From Sulfurovum sp. (lineage in GTDB: Bacteria; Campylobacterota; Campylobacteria; Campylobacterales; Sulfurovaceae), in assembly GCA_027046415.1 (NCBI GenBank), contig JALTYW010000070.1:1-17185 (forward strand): a DNA stretch of 17,185 nt. The letters run 5' to 3'. Both the position numbers and the translations under genes were made by a program. The notes below the pieces were generated by a model. It saw only the letters and a program-made list of their open reading frames with translations. It did not search any database and was not told the origin of the DNA. Positions 5,101 to 13,080 of this stretch are shown here, piece after piece; positions within the stretch are counted from its first letter, which is position 1; each line of letters begins with the position of its first letter.

Positions 5101-5177
5101 TGTTATCGCTTTGCGATAACAGTTAAGAGTGAATAGTGAATGGTGAATAGTTTTGGTATGCTTTTCTGTTGAAAAGC
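5101..5177 (-). repeat. Modular heptamer-hairpin repeat, copy A (intergenic)
   Basis: Read on the minus strand from 5177: a hairpin GCTTTTC-AACA-GAAAAGC, the core ATACCAAAACT (5159-5149), four 7-base units ATTCACC, ATTCACT, ATTCACT, CTTAACT (5148-5121), and a second hairpin GTTATCGC-AAA-GCGATAAC (5120-5102; one further A-T pair extends it to 5101). Copy B at 12515-12595 has the same parts in the same order. Its hairpin bases differ but pairing is kept, and its core is identical. It fills the gap between gltB and the phosphatase gene. The family is inferred from two copies; its mobility and function are unknown. Confidence 0.75.
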
Positions 5178-5196: not shown

Positions 5197-5943
5197 GTGG
5201 ATCCGTTTGTCAAAGCCTGTATTGGTGCCAATGAGGAGATCGCCAAAGCGATCGAAGCAGGTTTTGATGCATCGTGGTATGAAAAGACCGATATTGGTGC
5301 GGGTGGTGATGTGAGTTCACGGCTCGATCTCTTTGCCGAAGCTGTTTTTGTCAAACACCTCTCACCTTTTGGTTTTATAGAGTCTGAAGAGTCGGGGATC
5401 ATCGGTGAGGGGGACGCCCATATTATCATTGATCCCATCGACGGCTCTGCCAATGCACTTTCTGCGTTTCCCTATTATGGTACTTCTGTTGCGCGGGTCA
5501 ATGCAGACGGCGTGCTCGATGCAGCGGTGGTGTGTCACCTTGCCAACGGTGACATTTTTCTAAAAACCCCCTCTGCAACACTGCTGCAGGGAAAACTCTT
5601 TGCAGATACCTTCAAACCTGTTTCTTATGTACCCAATGCAGAAATTGGGCTTTTTGAAAAAGCCTATGCCAACCCGAAAGTGGTTTCTTTGCTCGATGAA
5701 GCCGGGTTGAAGTTTAGATCACCCGGTGCCGTTGCCCTTTCGCTTGCCTATGCCCACAGTGTCAGGTTTGTACTATTTGTCGGCACATTCCGCATTTACG
5801 ATTTTGCGGCAGGTTTGGCACTTTGTGAAGGACTTGAAGTGGTCGTTGAGCAAGATTATGTTATAGTATCGAAAGAAAAAAGTGTGGTCGATTTGATCGA
5901 GGGTATCATTGTCAAGACCAAAACCGTAGAAGAGGAAGCATAA
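5197..5943 (+). CDS. Inositol monophosphatase family protein
   Basis: This 248-residue protein belongs to the Mg2+-dependent, Li+-sensitive sugar-phosphatase superfamily (IMPase, FBPase and CysQ types). Visible metal-site motifs are E64/E65 in SEESG, D79-P-I-D82-G-S in IIIDPIDGSAN, and D202 in YDFAAG. The last corresponds to the family WDxAAG motif with Tyr in place of Trp. The start is GTG at 5197, with AAGG (5187-5190) six bases upstream. The stop TAA abuts the ATG of accD, so the two are probably co-transcribed. I recall the same phosphatase-accD pairing in Campylobacter, which suggests a long-lived association. The substrate cannot be told from sequence; inositol phosphate, fructose bisphosphate and phosphoadenosine phosphate are all possible. 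Confidence 0.85.
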   Translation: MDPFVKACIGANEEIAKAIEAGFDASWYEKTDIGAGGDVSSRLDLFAEAVFVKHLSPFGFIESEESGIIGEGDAHIIIDPIDGSANALSAFPYYGTSVARVNADGVLDAAVVCHLANGDIFLKTPSATLLQGKLFADTFKPVSYVPNAEIGLFEKAYANPKVVSLLDEAGLKFRSPGAVALSLAYAHSVRFVLFVGTFRIYDFAAGLALCEGLEVVVEQDYVIVSKEKSVVDLIEGIIVKTKTVEEEA

Positions 5944-11559: not shown

Positions 11560-13080
11560 ATGTATCTACCCTCTATCCTTCTGAAAATCTCCTATGCCCT
11601 GCAGGCAAAAGATGCCAGTGCCGTAGTTGTCGGGGGTGCGGTGCGGGATATGCTGCTTGGTCTGCCGGTCAAGGACTACGACATTGAAGTGTATGGACTG
11701 CACAAGGTTGAGGAGCTTGAGGCAATACTTGGTGCATTTGGCAGTGTCAGCAGTGTAGGAAAGAGCTTTGGGGTGGTCAAGCTCAAAAGTGGCACATGGG
11801 AGTTTGACTTTTCGTTTCCAAGAACCGAACGCAAGACAGGCAAGGGGCATCAGGGATTTGATGTTTCGGTCGATGGTACACTTGATTTTAAAACAGCGGC
11901 AAGACGCAGAGATTTTACCATAAATGCCATCGGCTACGAGATGCAAAAGTGTTCTCTGATAGACCCGTACGGTGGTGTGGAGGACATTAAACAGGGGATG
12001 TTACGTCACATCGATGCCAATACCTTTGTCGAAGATCCGCTACGGGTCTACCGTGCCGTACAGTTTGCTGCACGTTTTGGATTTAACGTAGCTGAAGAGA
12101 CAGCTGCACTTTGCAAAAAGATGGTTGTCGAAGGGATGCTTGACGAGCTTCCCAAAGAACGTGTCTATGAGGAATGGAAGAAGCTCCTGCTCAAAGCAGA
12201 CAAACCCTCAATTGGACTGGAGCTGATGCGTGAGTGGGGAATAATAGAGCGCTATTTTCCGGAACTGCATGCGCTCATTGGCGTACCGCAGGATGCCAAG
12301 TGGCACCCAGAGGGGGATGTGTGGGTGCATACGATGATGGTTGTTGATGAAATGGGAGCAATAGGGAGTAGGGAGCAGGGAGCAGGGAGCAGTGGAGAGA
12401 AGGAGAGACTAAAGCTGCTCTTTGCAGCACTCTGTCACGACTTTGGCAAACCCCTTACCACCACTATCGAATATGAAGATGGCAGAGTTGAAAAGTGGAA
12501 TGAAATAAATAAAAGTGTTTCGCAAGAAACACATACCAAAACTCTTCACTCTTCACTCTTCACTCTTCACTCGAATGCGCGCATACGCGCACTTCGCCAC
12601 GAAAAAGCAGGGCTTGAACCTACCCGAAACTTTTTATACCGCCTTACCAACGAACATGATTTCATTGATAGCATTCTGCCATTGGTAGAACATCATCTCA
12701 AACTTTCACAGTTTTATGCGCAGGGGGCAAAGGATGGAGCCATCAGGCGGCTGGCGACCAAGGTTAACATCGAAGAGCTGGTACTAGTGGCAAAGGCGGA
12801 CTTTTTGGGGCGTACGACACCTGAAGCAAAGAGGGGGGAGTACCCTGCCGGAGAGTGGCTGCTTGAGAAAGCGCAGAAACTTTCTGTACGTACAGAGCCG
12901 CTTAAGCCGCTGGTGCAGGGGCGAGACCTGATCGCACTGGGGTTGCAGCCCTCACCACAATTTAAAACGATGCTTGATGATCTGTACGCTATGCAGCTTG
13001 ATGGCAAAATCGAAACAAAAGAAGCGGCAATTGACTATATTGTCTCCAAATACATCAAAAACAAAGAAGATGGTGTATAA
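11560..13080 (+). CDS. cca: CCA-adding tRNA nucleotidyltransferase with HD domain, carrying two repeat-derived inserts
   Basis: This class II nucleotidyltransferase adds or repairs the 3' CCA of tRNAs without a template. It has 506 residues. The head domain shows VVVGGAVRDMLLG (GG at 25-26) and catalytic D39-Y-D41. Then come RRRDFTINAIG, DPYGGVEDIKQGMLRHID and EDPLRVYRAVQFAARF, the nucleotide-selecting and neck motifs. An HD phosphohydrolase domain follows, with H293-D294 in ALCHDFGKP. Two stretches look foreign. One (GSREQGAGSS, from the GGGAGCA array) sits just before the HD motif. The other, about 30 residues around SVSQETHTKTLHSSLF, is encoded by repeat copy B and lies between DGR and RHEKAG. 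Both keep the frame. ATG 11560 was chosen because AGGA (11551-11554) is five bases upstream. A poly(A) polymerase is the alternative, but tRNA nucleotidyltransferase is favoured. Confidence 0.9.
   Translation: MYLPSILLKISYALQAKDASAVVVGGAVRDMLLGLPVKDYDIEVYGLHKVEELEAILGAFGSVSSVGKSFGVVKLKSGTWEFDFSFPRTERKTGKGHQGFDVSVDGTLDFKTAARRRDFTINAIGYEMQKCSLIDPYGGVEDIKQGMLRHIDANTFVEDPLRVYRAVQFAARFGFNVAEETAALCKKMVVEGMLDELPKERVYEEWKKLLLKADKPSIGLELMREWGIIERYFPELHALIGVPQDAKWHPEGDVWVHTMMVVDEMGAIGSREQGAGSSGEKERLKLLFAALCHDFGKPLTTTIEYEDGRVEKWNEINKSVSQETHTKTLHSSLFTLHSNARIRALRHEKAGLEPTRNFLYRLTNEHDFIDSILPLVEHHLKLSQFYAQGAKDGAIRRLATKVNIEELVLVAKADFLGRTTPEAKRGEYPAGEWLLEKAQKLSVRTEPLKPLVQGRDLIALGLQPSPQFKTMLDDLYAMQLDGKIETKEAAIDYIVSKYIKNKEDGV
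12354..12391 (+). repeat. GGGAGCA heptamer array inside cca
   Basis: One GGGAGCA (12354-12360), then ATA, GGGAGTA (12364-12370) and three perfect GGGAGCA units (12371-12391). Heptamer arrays of this kind occur as short tandem repeats between genes in many bacteria, so finding one in a coding region is unusual. It encodes a low-complexity Gly/Ser/Gln/Glu linker. Gaining or losing one or two units would shift the frame; three units would not. Confidence 0.85.
12515..12595 (+). repeat. Modular heptamer-hairpin repeat, copy B (in frame inside cca)
   Basis: In order: hairpin GTGTTTC-GCAA-GAAACAC (12515-12532), core ATACCAAAACT (12533-12543), four perfect CTTCACT units (12544-12571), and a second hairpin whose stem is TGCGCG / CGCGCA with loop CATA (12576-12591), extended by GAA / TTC across a bulged C. 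The 81-base span is a multiple of three. It has no stop in the cca frame. The same parts occur in reverse orientation at 5101-5177. Exact ends are uncertain, because the right hairpin overlaps codons that may be native to cca. Confidence 0.75.

What the first reader, a model, noticed from the sequence alone, without database searches (positions are those of the whole stretch)
5101..5177. Modular repeat with paired hairpins, an invariant core and four heptamers, shared with copy B inside cca
Copy A (minus strand) and copy B (12515-12595) share one architecture: a 7-bp stem with 4-nt loop, the 11-nt core ATACCAAAACT, exactly four 7-nt units of type (A/C)TTCACT, and a second GC-richer hairpin. 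The stem sequences differ but pairing is preserved in both copies, which suggests selection on structure in DNA or RNA. I cannot name this family. It could be a small non-autonomous mobile element or a processed RNA motif.
Basis: partly seen in the sequence, partly recalled or inferred. Interest (0 to 1): 0.8.

Follow-up and report, generated by a model that had tools for sequence, protein, structure and literature searches.

The report
Hairpin-and-heptamer repeats at gene edges
Bacteria of the Sulfurovum group carry dozens of copies of a small repeated DNA module (a hairpin, about four 7-letter repeats, and often a second hairpin) that sits mostly right at the starts and ends of genes, and its layout suggests how genes survive such insertions.

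Summary
Both copies are real and belong to a family: 38 model hits in this genome, hits in 31 of 60 genomes searched, own included, all seven hairpin-1 pairs covarying over 124 copies. Anatomy: hairpin 1, CATACC core, usually four 7-nt units, then in about half of the copies a second hairpin that differs from site to site yet starts within 2 nt of the array end (58 of 126 against 0.8% of control positions). The heptamer side faces a gene start in 54 copies, a gene end in 61, undetermined 11. Empty sites in relatives show insertion at cca (copy B), ubiX/coaD and gltB/cysQ (copy A). At gene starts an upstream ORF usually reads through the element and stops on the gene's start codon; hairpin 2 often holds the Shine-Dalgarno and/or start codon. 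At gene ends the reversed heptamers give stop codons and hairpin 1 with its T-run resembles a terminator. Best reading: a non-autonomous, anciently mobile element tolerated at gene edges, with translational coupling at starts. The mobilising enzyme is unknown. Heptamer quartets with the same strand rule are published for Xanthomonas and Nostoc; the hairpin-framed form was not found in the searches made.

The parts
5160..5177 (-). Copy A hairpin 1 (GCTTTTC-AACA-GAAAAGC), 7 bp; read on the + strand it is followed by TTTTGTT (terminator-like)
   Evidence: covariation of the family
5149..5159 (-). Copy A core ATACCAAAACT
5121..5148 (-). Copy A four heptamers (ATTCACC, ATTCACT, ATTCACT, CTTAACT)
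5101..5121 (-). Copy A hairpin 2 (TGTTATCGC-AAA-GCGATAACA on the element strand), directly after the array, next to the gltB stop codon
648..5099 (+). gltB, glutamate synthase large subunit; its 3' end faces copy A
5197..5943 (+). inositol-monophosphatase-family gene (called cysQ here; NCBIfam matches are all below their cut-offs) on the hairpin-1 side of copy A
12515..12532 (+). Copy B hairpin 1 (GTGTTTC-GCAA-GAAACAC)
12533..12543 (+). Copy B core ATACCAAAACT
12544..12571 (+). Copy B four CTTCACT heptamers
12572..12596 (+). Copy B hairpin 2 (CGAATGCGCG-CATA-CGCGCACTTCG); the gene-side arm corresponds to native cca codons, the array-side arm to inserted codons
11536..13080 (+). cca (CCA tRNA nucleotidyltransferase-like; NCBIfam matches below their cut-offs), interrupted in frame by copy B

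Best explanation
Both copies belong to a family of small non-autonomous insertion elements (about 66-75 nt: hairpin 1, CATACC core, four heptamers; plus, in about half of the copies, a site-made second hairpin) that spread long ago through Sulfurovum and relatives and persist where genes can survive them, at gene edges. SHOWN: family, hairpin-1 covariation, empty sites, orientation pattern, hairpin 2 abutting the array, leader reading frames. INFERRED: how it works. At a gene start, the pyrimidine-rich orientation is usually free of stop codons, so a ribosome that starts at an upstream Shine-Dalgarno/ATG reads through hairpin 1 and the heptamers and stops at a codon overlapping the gene's ATG. 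Hairpin 2, which often holds the gene's Shine-Dalgarno and/or start codon, is opened by that ribosome, so the gene is translated by coupling. At a gene end, the opposite orientation supplies stop codons at once, and hairpin 1 with its T-run acts as a terminator (copy A, after gltB). Inside a gene an in-frame copy can survive (copy B in cca). Hairpin 2 is either made at insertion by inverted copying of the flank or made and kept by selection. The mobilising enzyme is not identified.
For: Family and structure: 38 hits in the own genome, 31 of 60 genomes, own included, 27 of 298 genomes of the phylum, own included; hairpin 1 paired in 98.1% of cells with double changes at 7 of 7 pairs over 124 copies. 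Insertion: of 22 cca loci aligned across the site, 13 have no insert and 4 an intact in-frame element; in 13 of 33 coaD loci coaD directly follows or overlaps ubiX (read by eye), while loci with the element have the insert; gltB and cysQ lie 4-12 nt apart, stop codon included, in 10 of 24 loci where they are neighbours. Hairpin 2: 58 of 126 copies have a stem scoring 7 or more abutting the array against 0.8% of random positions. At coaD 9 of 13 loci with an array have such a stem against 2 of 20 without (one of the two, L281, carries a decayed element). At the priA 3' end 7 of 7 element-bearing sequences have it and the one without does not; at the tsaD start 5 of 5 have it and 0 of 2 element-free. 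Translation, with genes re-scored by codon usage: of 49 gene-start copies with an ATG, 36 have an ORF of at least 75 nt stopping -5 to +7 from it, 30 with a leader up to 200 nt; in G016 the figures are 205 and 54 of 810 ATG starts. Where the start reads ATGA, its TGA closes a frame open through the element in 21 of 25 against 9.0 expected, p 1e-6. 16 of 19 nearby in-frame leader ATGs have a Shine-Dalgarno-like motif. Of 27 gene-start copies (first classification) with a strong hairpin 2, the Shine-Dalgarno lies in arm or loop in 22. Orientation: hairpin-1 type ATTGC-like/TTT-like is 36/8 at starts and 15/44 at ends, p 1e-8; TAA in the forward array in 10 of 54 against 34 of 61, p 5e-5.
Against: No enzyme fits: RVT_1 is absent from element-rich, near-complete G014, G016, G020 and G024; Y1_Tnp is absent from the incomplete own genome and from near-complete G020 and G033. 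Very close strains were not compared, so no recent insertion is shown; no target-site duplication was seen by eye at the three sites; the sharing of sites between species speaks for old, mostly vertical copies. In cca about 27 nt upstream of hairpin 1 are also absent from empty relatives, so the left boundary is unclear. 13 of 49 gene-start copies lack the leader ORF, and ATGA itself is not enriched (22 of 44 in the first classification against 53% of ordinary starts). 25% of ordinary starts also have such an upstream ORF, mostly longer than 200 nt. Hairpin 2 is also found at 25 of 61 gene ends (32 of 54 starts, p 0.06; first classification 28 of 62 and 27 of 50, p 0.45), so masking of the ribosome site cannot be its only reason. 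About half of the copies lack a strong hairpin 2. In copy A both arms of hairpin 2 appear to be new DNA, so plain copying of the gene edge does not explain that copy. The terminator-like site of copy A is one hit where 0.4 are expected by chance. Orthologous copies are not independent, so the p values are too favourable.
Confidence: 0.55

Rival explanations
1. Host-evolved regulatory or insulating gene-boundary module (translational attenuator at starts, terminator plus stop cassette at ends), no longer or never mobile.
For: Same genes carry it in several species with different but pairing hairpin 2 (coaD, tsaD, priA, gltB); hairpin 2 arms change together, e.g. gltB own against G009; leader ORF coupling.
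Against: Closely similar sequence at many unrelated genes; copy B inside cca; patchy presence within one genus, no hit in 9 of 36 other same-genus genomes and up to 86 in others; no common function evident among the ten neighbouring genes named (tsaD, murI, apaH, ppk, hisA, aat, coaD, ubiX, priA, gltB; an eleventh, in L004, matched no family).
Confidence: 0.25
2. Mutational by-product: polymerase slippage makes 7-nt tandem arrays at gene edges and template switching makes palindromes beside them; no element and no function.
For: In 1.2 Mb of G016, period-7 arrays number 54 against 0-9 for the other periods from 4 to 12 and have many unit sequences, many without hairpin 1; a second site in cca has heptamers of different sequence in several species.
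Against: Does not explain the shared hairpin 1 and CATACC core, the fixed order of parts, four units in 92 of 129 copies, or the orientation pattern.
Confidence: 0.12
3. REP/REPIN-type element mobilised by a RAYT (Y1 tyrosine transposase).
For: Hairpin plus flanking short motif, head-to-head pairs; Y1_Tnp is present in 31 of 41 same-genus genomes; GTAG and CGTC REPs are reported for Sulfurovum NBC37-1 (PMC3733652, passages read).
Against: No GTAG or CGTC tag at the foot of hairpin 1 in 22 of 23 aligned copies (L010 has GTAG there, by eye); Y1_Tnp absent from near-complete element-bearing G020 and G033; REPs as described have no heptamer array.
Confidence: 0.05

Closest known systems
GGGNATC / GGGGA(C/T)T heptamer repeats of Xanthomonas and Nostoc (Rehm et al. 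2015, PMC4692102; abstract, sections 13, 14, 16 and passages read)
   Same: 7-nt unit, preference for four units, closeness (within 50 bp) to gene edges, purine-rich strand antisense upstream of ORFs and sense after stop codons, inverted pairs, same gene neighbours kept between species while the repeat varies.
   Different: They are G-quadruplex formers and the authors link the four-unit bias to that; the main units here (AGTGAAG, AGGAATG, GATTGAG) have no run of three G. No hairpin 1, core, site-specific hairpin 2 or leader ORF was mentioned in the parts read. In the three such arrays of viral contigs that I could look at, none had an abutting hairpin (0 of 3).
TAACTGA heptamer repeats of Beggiatoaceae, Cyanobacteria and Bacteroidetes (MacGregor 2015, PMC4679880; abstract, sections 9, 10, 15 and passages read)
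   Same: Heptamer arrays of 2-6 units in the Beggiatoa genome, mostly just upstream of start codons, stop codons in all frames in one orientation, insertions tolerated at protein ends, suspected horizontal spread.
   Different: No hairpins flanking the arrays were mentioned in the parts read; the stop-rich orientation faces the start there, the stop-poor one here.
Rickettsia palindromic elements (recalled; mentioned in a passage of PMC3733652)
   Same: Small hairpin repeats that can sit in frame inside genes, as copy B does in cca.
   Different: No heptamer array or site-specific second hairpin as far as recalled; sequences were not compared here.
REP/BIME and REPIN elements (PMC3733652 passages; otherwise recalled)
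   Same: Short dispersed hairpins, inverted pairs, possible terminator role after genes.
   Different: Defining GTAG/CGTC tag and RAYT partner not met here; heptamers and hairpin 2 added.
Cyanobacterial STRR heptanucleotide repeats (recalled; search listing only)
   Same: Tandem heptamers in intergenic regions.
   Different: Structure around them was not examined here.

Membership tests
REP/REPIN (RAYT-associated) | GTAG (or CGTC) tag beside the hairpin | tested here: not met
   22 of 23 aligned copies have no such tag at the foot of hairpin 1, L010 has GTAG (by eye); tag definition from PMC3733652 passages and recall.
REP/REPIN (RAYT-associated) | Y1 transposase (RAYT) in carrier genomes | tested here: not met
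   PF01797 absent from own genome (66% complete) and from near-complete element-rich G020 and G033; present in 31 of 41 genomes, with no relation to element number apparent.
Retroelement with target-primed synthesis | Reverse transcriptase in carrier genomes | tested here: not met
   PF00078 absent from G014, G016, G020, G024; present in 14 of 41.
MITE / DNA transposon derivative | Terminal inverted repeats and target-site duplication | tested here: inconclusive
   None seen by eye at the cca, coaD and gltB sites, but the empty sites are from distant species and the left boundary is unclear; head-to-head pairs, which are inverted, occur.
Known structured RNA | Match to an Rfam family at the gathering score | tested here: not met
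   0 matches in the window; only the gathering threshold was used.
Gene-edge heptamer repeats (Rehm 2015 type) | 7-nt unit with preference for four units | tested here: met
   Four units in 92 of 129 copies; the model behind many of the loci was built on four-unit copies.
Gene-edge heptamer repeats (Rehm 2015 type) | Purine strand antisense near starts, sense near stops | tested here: met
   54 gene-start and 61 gene-end copies of 126, 11 undetermined.
Gene-edge heptamer repeats (Rehm 2015 type) | G-quadruplex-forming unit (three or more consecutive G) | tested here: not met
   Main units of the hairpin-framed copies have no GGG.
Rickettsia palindromic elements | Sequence relationship to RPE families | not tested
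   No RPE sequences were compared.

The most novel reading that the evidence does not exclude
Gene-edge heptamer quartets are a general class of bacterial insertion whose geometry is set by translation, not by G-quadruplexes. The 7-nt period (7 mod 3 = 1) makes one strand readable in every frame and the other full of stops, so the same element can be read through at a gene start and can stop reading at a gene end. In Sulfurovum the class carries a REP-like hairpin and makes its own second hairpin at many sites by inverted copying of the gene edge, which yields a ready-made coupled start site. This would be a new kind of mobile element and a new route to translational coupling.
Probability: 0.25. 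Interest if true: 0.88.

Novelty: new variant of a known kind. Interest (0 to 1): 0.7.

Why it matters
Heptamer repeats at gene edges have been reported without explanation in distant bacteria. Here the same geometry appears with units that lack G-runs, which weakens the published reason for the four-unit rule and points to reading frames and translation. The site-specific hairpin and leader ORF make testable predictions for genes such as coaD, tsaD and murI, and the filled and empty sites make the element's origin tractable.

Tried and rejected
RAYT and reverse transcriptase as mobilising enzymes: presence does not track element number. Known RNA family: none at the gathering score. Terminator-only explanation: fails for gene-start copies and for copy B. 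Pre-existing hairpins as insertion targets: not favoured, because element-free sequences lack a comparable hairpin at coaD (18 of 20 loci without an array; 18 of 19 if L281, a decayed element, is set aside), tsaD (2 of 2) and priA (1 of 1). Pure Shine-Dalgarno masking as the reason for hairpin 2: weakened, because gene-end copies have it too. mRNA 5'-3' panhandle through complementary heptamers at the two ends of a gene: considered, not tested. First classification by longest ORF (50 starts, 62 ends, 14 undetermined) put at least four gene-start copies among gene ends; one search repeats it with codon-usage scores and moves 10 of 126. Spread on phages: the scan of viral contigs found CTTCACT arrays (51 stretches), but a strong abutting hairpin in only 2 of 55 arrays (19 of 55 have some hairpin of 6 or more upstream, no matched control), so these are mostly bare arrays. 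Plasmid and phage BLAST with copy B gave short matches within the core and heptamers, and one element on a Sulfurovum mangrovi record. The MAFFT alignment of the gltB sites (A3) used a wrong range or strand for L308 and was not used. Literature: no earlier description of the hairpin-framed element found in the searches (open-licence library only; listings seen; one search searched three literal strings and found 0 papers).

Full report
What is there. Copy A (5101-5177, minus strand) and copy B (12515-12596, plus strand) are as described: a 7-bp hairpin 1, the core ATACCAAAACT, four 7-nt units and a second hairpin. The shared 18-nt pattern occurs twice in the window against 0.04 expected with up to 3 mismatches. 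That the genome is a Sulfurovum is inferred from its relatives: 52 of 65 named stretches with the pattern are labelled Sulfurovum, the other 13 carry other Campylobacterota labels.

It is a family. The pattern search of the own genome (a 1.44-Mb assembly, 66% complete) gave 30 hits with up to 3 mismatches against 9 for the reversed control pattern; 25 were judged real by eye. From 23 copies I built alignment A2 and model R1; R1 finds 38 places in the own genome at E up to 0.001, the weakest near 3e-4. Hairpin 1 pairs in 98.1% of cells in A2, with double changes at 6 of 7 pairs. Over 124 copies it again pairs in 98.1% of cells, with double changes at all 7 pairs and covariation 0.47 against 0.12 shuffled (that alignment was fitted to the model, but the slid controls are at most 0.13; 73 chosen loci were searched). 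Of 60 genomes (own included) 31 have hits, very unevenly: 9 of 36 other same-genus genomes have none, while G002, G009 and G035 have 86, near the 87 candidates scored. Of 298 genomes of the phylum (own included; only 17 candidates scored each) 27 have hits; outside the family I find only G039 convincing (13 hits). Of the copies read there, most keep hairpin 1 and four heptamers, some with a hairpin 2, with a GC-richer hairpin 1. Hits elsewhere outside the family, with E of 1e-6 or weaker, are doubtful.

Heptamers. Four units in 92 of 129 copies (many of the 24 counted as five look like phase artefacts that include the core). Copies with a similar hairpin 1 and CATACC carry other heptamers, such as CATTCCT, CCTCAAT and ATCACTC. 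In cca the own species has CTTCACT four times and G009 has CATTCCT four times at the same insertion. So the unit sequence turns over as a block. In 1.2 Mb of G016, period 7 stands out: 54 arrays against 0-9 for the other periods from 4 to 12, many without hairpin 1.

Hairpin 2. It differs from site to site yet begins at the array end. In 58 of 126 copies a stem scoring 7 or more starts within 2 nt of the array end, against 0.8% of random positions and 0.2% of shuffles; a positional profile peaks at offset 0. From 129 detected copies, 3 were dropped as reversed detections or repeats. Its gene-side arm is often the gene edge itself. At the priA 3' end the last codons vary synonymously between species and the non-coding arm follows; 7 of 7 element-bearing sequences have the stem and the one without hairpin 1 and core does not. 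At the tsaD start 5 of 5 with and 0 of 2 without the element have it, with different stem sequences. At the gltB end the own copy and G009 differ by paired changes on both arms. At coaD 9 of 13 loci with an array and 2 of 20 without have a stem of 7 or more; of these two, L281 carries a decayed element and L302 a different GC-rich repeat.

Empty sites. cca: 30 loci were fetched, 22 align across the site; 13 have the short uninterrupted form, 4 (own, G009, G035, G025) an intact in-frame element with differing hairpin-1 sequences (own and G009 share theirs), 4 other or decayed insertions, 1 is disrupted. ubiX/coaD: in 13 of 33 loci coaD starts at or next to the end of ubiX; in species with the element a head-to-head pair or a single copy lies between (read by eye). 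gltB/cysQ: of 24 loci where the two are neighbours (30 fetched), 10 have 4-12 nt between the last gltB codon and the cysQ start, stop codon included; the element is present in the own genome, G009 and G016, and partly in G002; the other 10 have 31-181 nt of other or unassigned sequence.

Gene-edge rule. A first classification by ORF length gave 50 gene starts, 62 gene ends and 14 undetermined, with at least four evident errors. Re-scored by codon usage learnt from G016 it is 54, 61 and 11. Hairpin 1 is ATTGC-like in 36 and TTT-like in 8 of the gene-start copies, against 15 and 44 of the gene-end copies (p 1e-8). Read from the gene end, the TTT-like hairpin followed by a T-run resembles a terminator; copy A is detected as one at 5160-5177 on the + strand, where 0.4 are expected by chance. 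The forward array contains TAA in 10 of 54 against 34 of 61 (p 5e-5). Reversed arrays have no open frame in 52 of 54 and 35 of 61. Strong hairpin 2 occurs in 32 of 54 and 25 of 61 (p 0.06) (first classification p 0.45). These copies include orthologues, so they are not independent.

Leader ORF. Of 49 gene-start copies whose gene starts with ATG, 36 have an ORF of at least 75 nt that stops between -5 and +7 of the start, 30 of them with a leader up to 200 nt (first classification 33 and 28 of 44). In G016, 205 and 54 of 810 ATG starts do (these include starts that carry the element). A stop-free array makes an open frame easier, so I also asked whether the TGA of ATGA starts closes the particular frame that is open through the element: 21 of 25, against 9.0 expected from the number of open frames (first 19 of 22 against 8.0). 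16 of 19 nearby in-frame leader ATGs have a Shine-Dalgarno-like motif. In 27 gene-start copies (first classification) with a strong hairpin 2, the Shine-Dalgarno is in the left arm in 11, the right arm in 7, the loop in 4, beyond in 1, not found in 4; the start codon is within the hairpin in 18, two of them doubtful picks. ATGA as such is not enriched.

Mechanism. The simplest reading is an old mobile element tolerated at gene edges because of its frame properties, with translational coupling rescuing genes at their starts. Coupling and termination are inferred, not shown. Hairpin 2 could arise by snap-back copying of the flank at insertion or by selection and palindrome correction; its presence at starts and ends favours a structural or templated origin, and its paired changes favour upkeep. 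Neither Y1 transposase nor reverse transcriptase tracks the element.

What is known. Rehm et al. 2015 (PMC4692102) describe heptamer repeats in Xanthomonas and Nostoc with a four-unit preference and the same strand rule at starts and stops, and tie four units to G-quadruplexes. The main units here have no run of three G, so the shared geometry needs another reason. The three arrays of their type found in viral contigs have no abutting hairpin, so hairpin 2 is not shown beyond Campylobacterota. MacGregor 2015 (PMC4679880) describes TAACTGA arrays upstream of starts, with stops in all frames in one orientation. The hairpin-framed form and the leader ORF were not found in the searches listed under Tried and rejected.

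Noticed in passing
window 12363-12397: A second, purine-rich heptamer array (AGGGAGC) lies inside cca; at the same linker several relatives carry heptamer-like repeats of a different sequence (AAAAATT, GCGTTCA, GGAATTA and others, by eye).
   Followed up: partly
L386-L436 (viral contigs): CTTCACT arrays in environmental viral contigs; 32 of 55 have exactly four units, and 19 of 62 arrays are preceded directly by AGCAAATT or AGCAAACT. Abutting hairpins in 2 of 55.
   Followed up: partly
L217-L276 (G016): Period-7 tandem arrays of many unit sequences, many without hairpin 1, far exceed arrays of any other period from 4 to 12.
   Followed up: partly
L381 (NZ_CP087125.1, Sulfurovum mangrovi): An element sits next to folP on a 395-kb linear record labelled plasmid that also carries DNA polymerase III delta' and HobA-family genes; it may be a piece of the chromosome.
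   Followed up: no
L121, L140, L151, G000 contigs C24, C55, C117, C155, C185: Head-to-head pairs of elements in one intergenic space; at ubiX/coaD one faces the upstream gene's end and one the downstream gene's start.
   Followed up: partly
L302, upstream of coaD: A different GC-rich hairpin repeat (GTGGGCA...TGCCCAC) lies upstream of coaD in G007.
   Followed up: no
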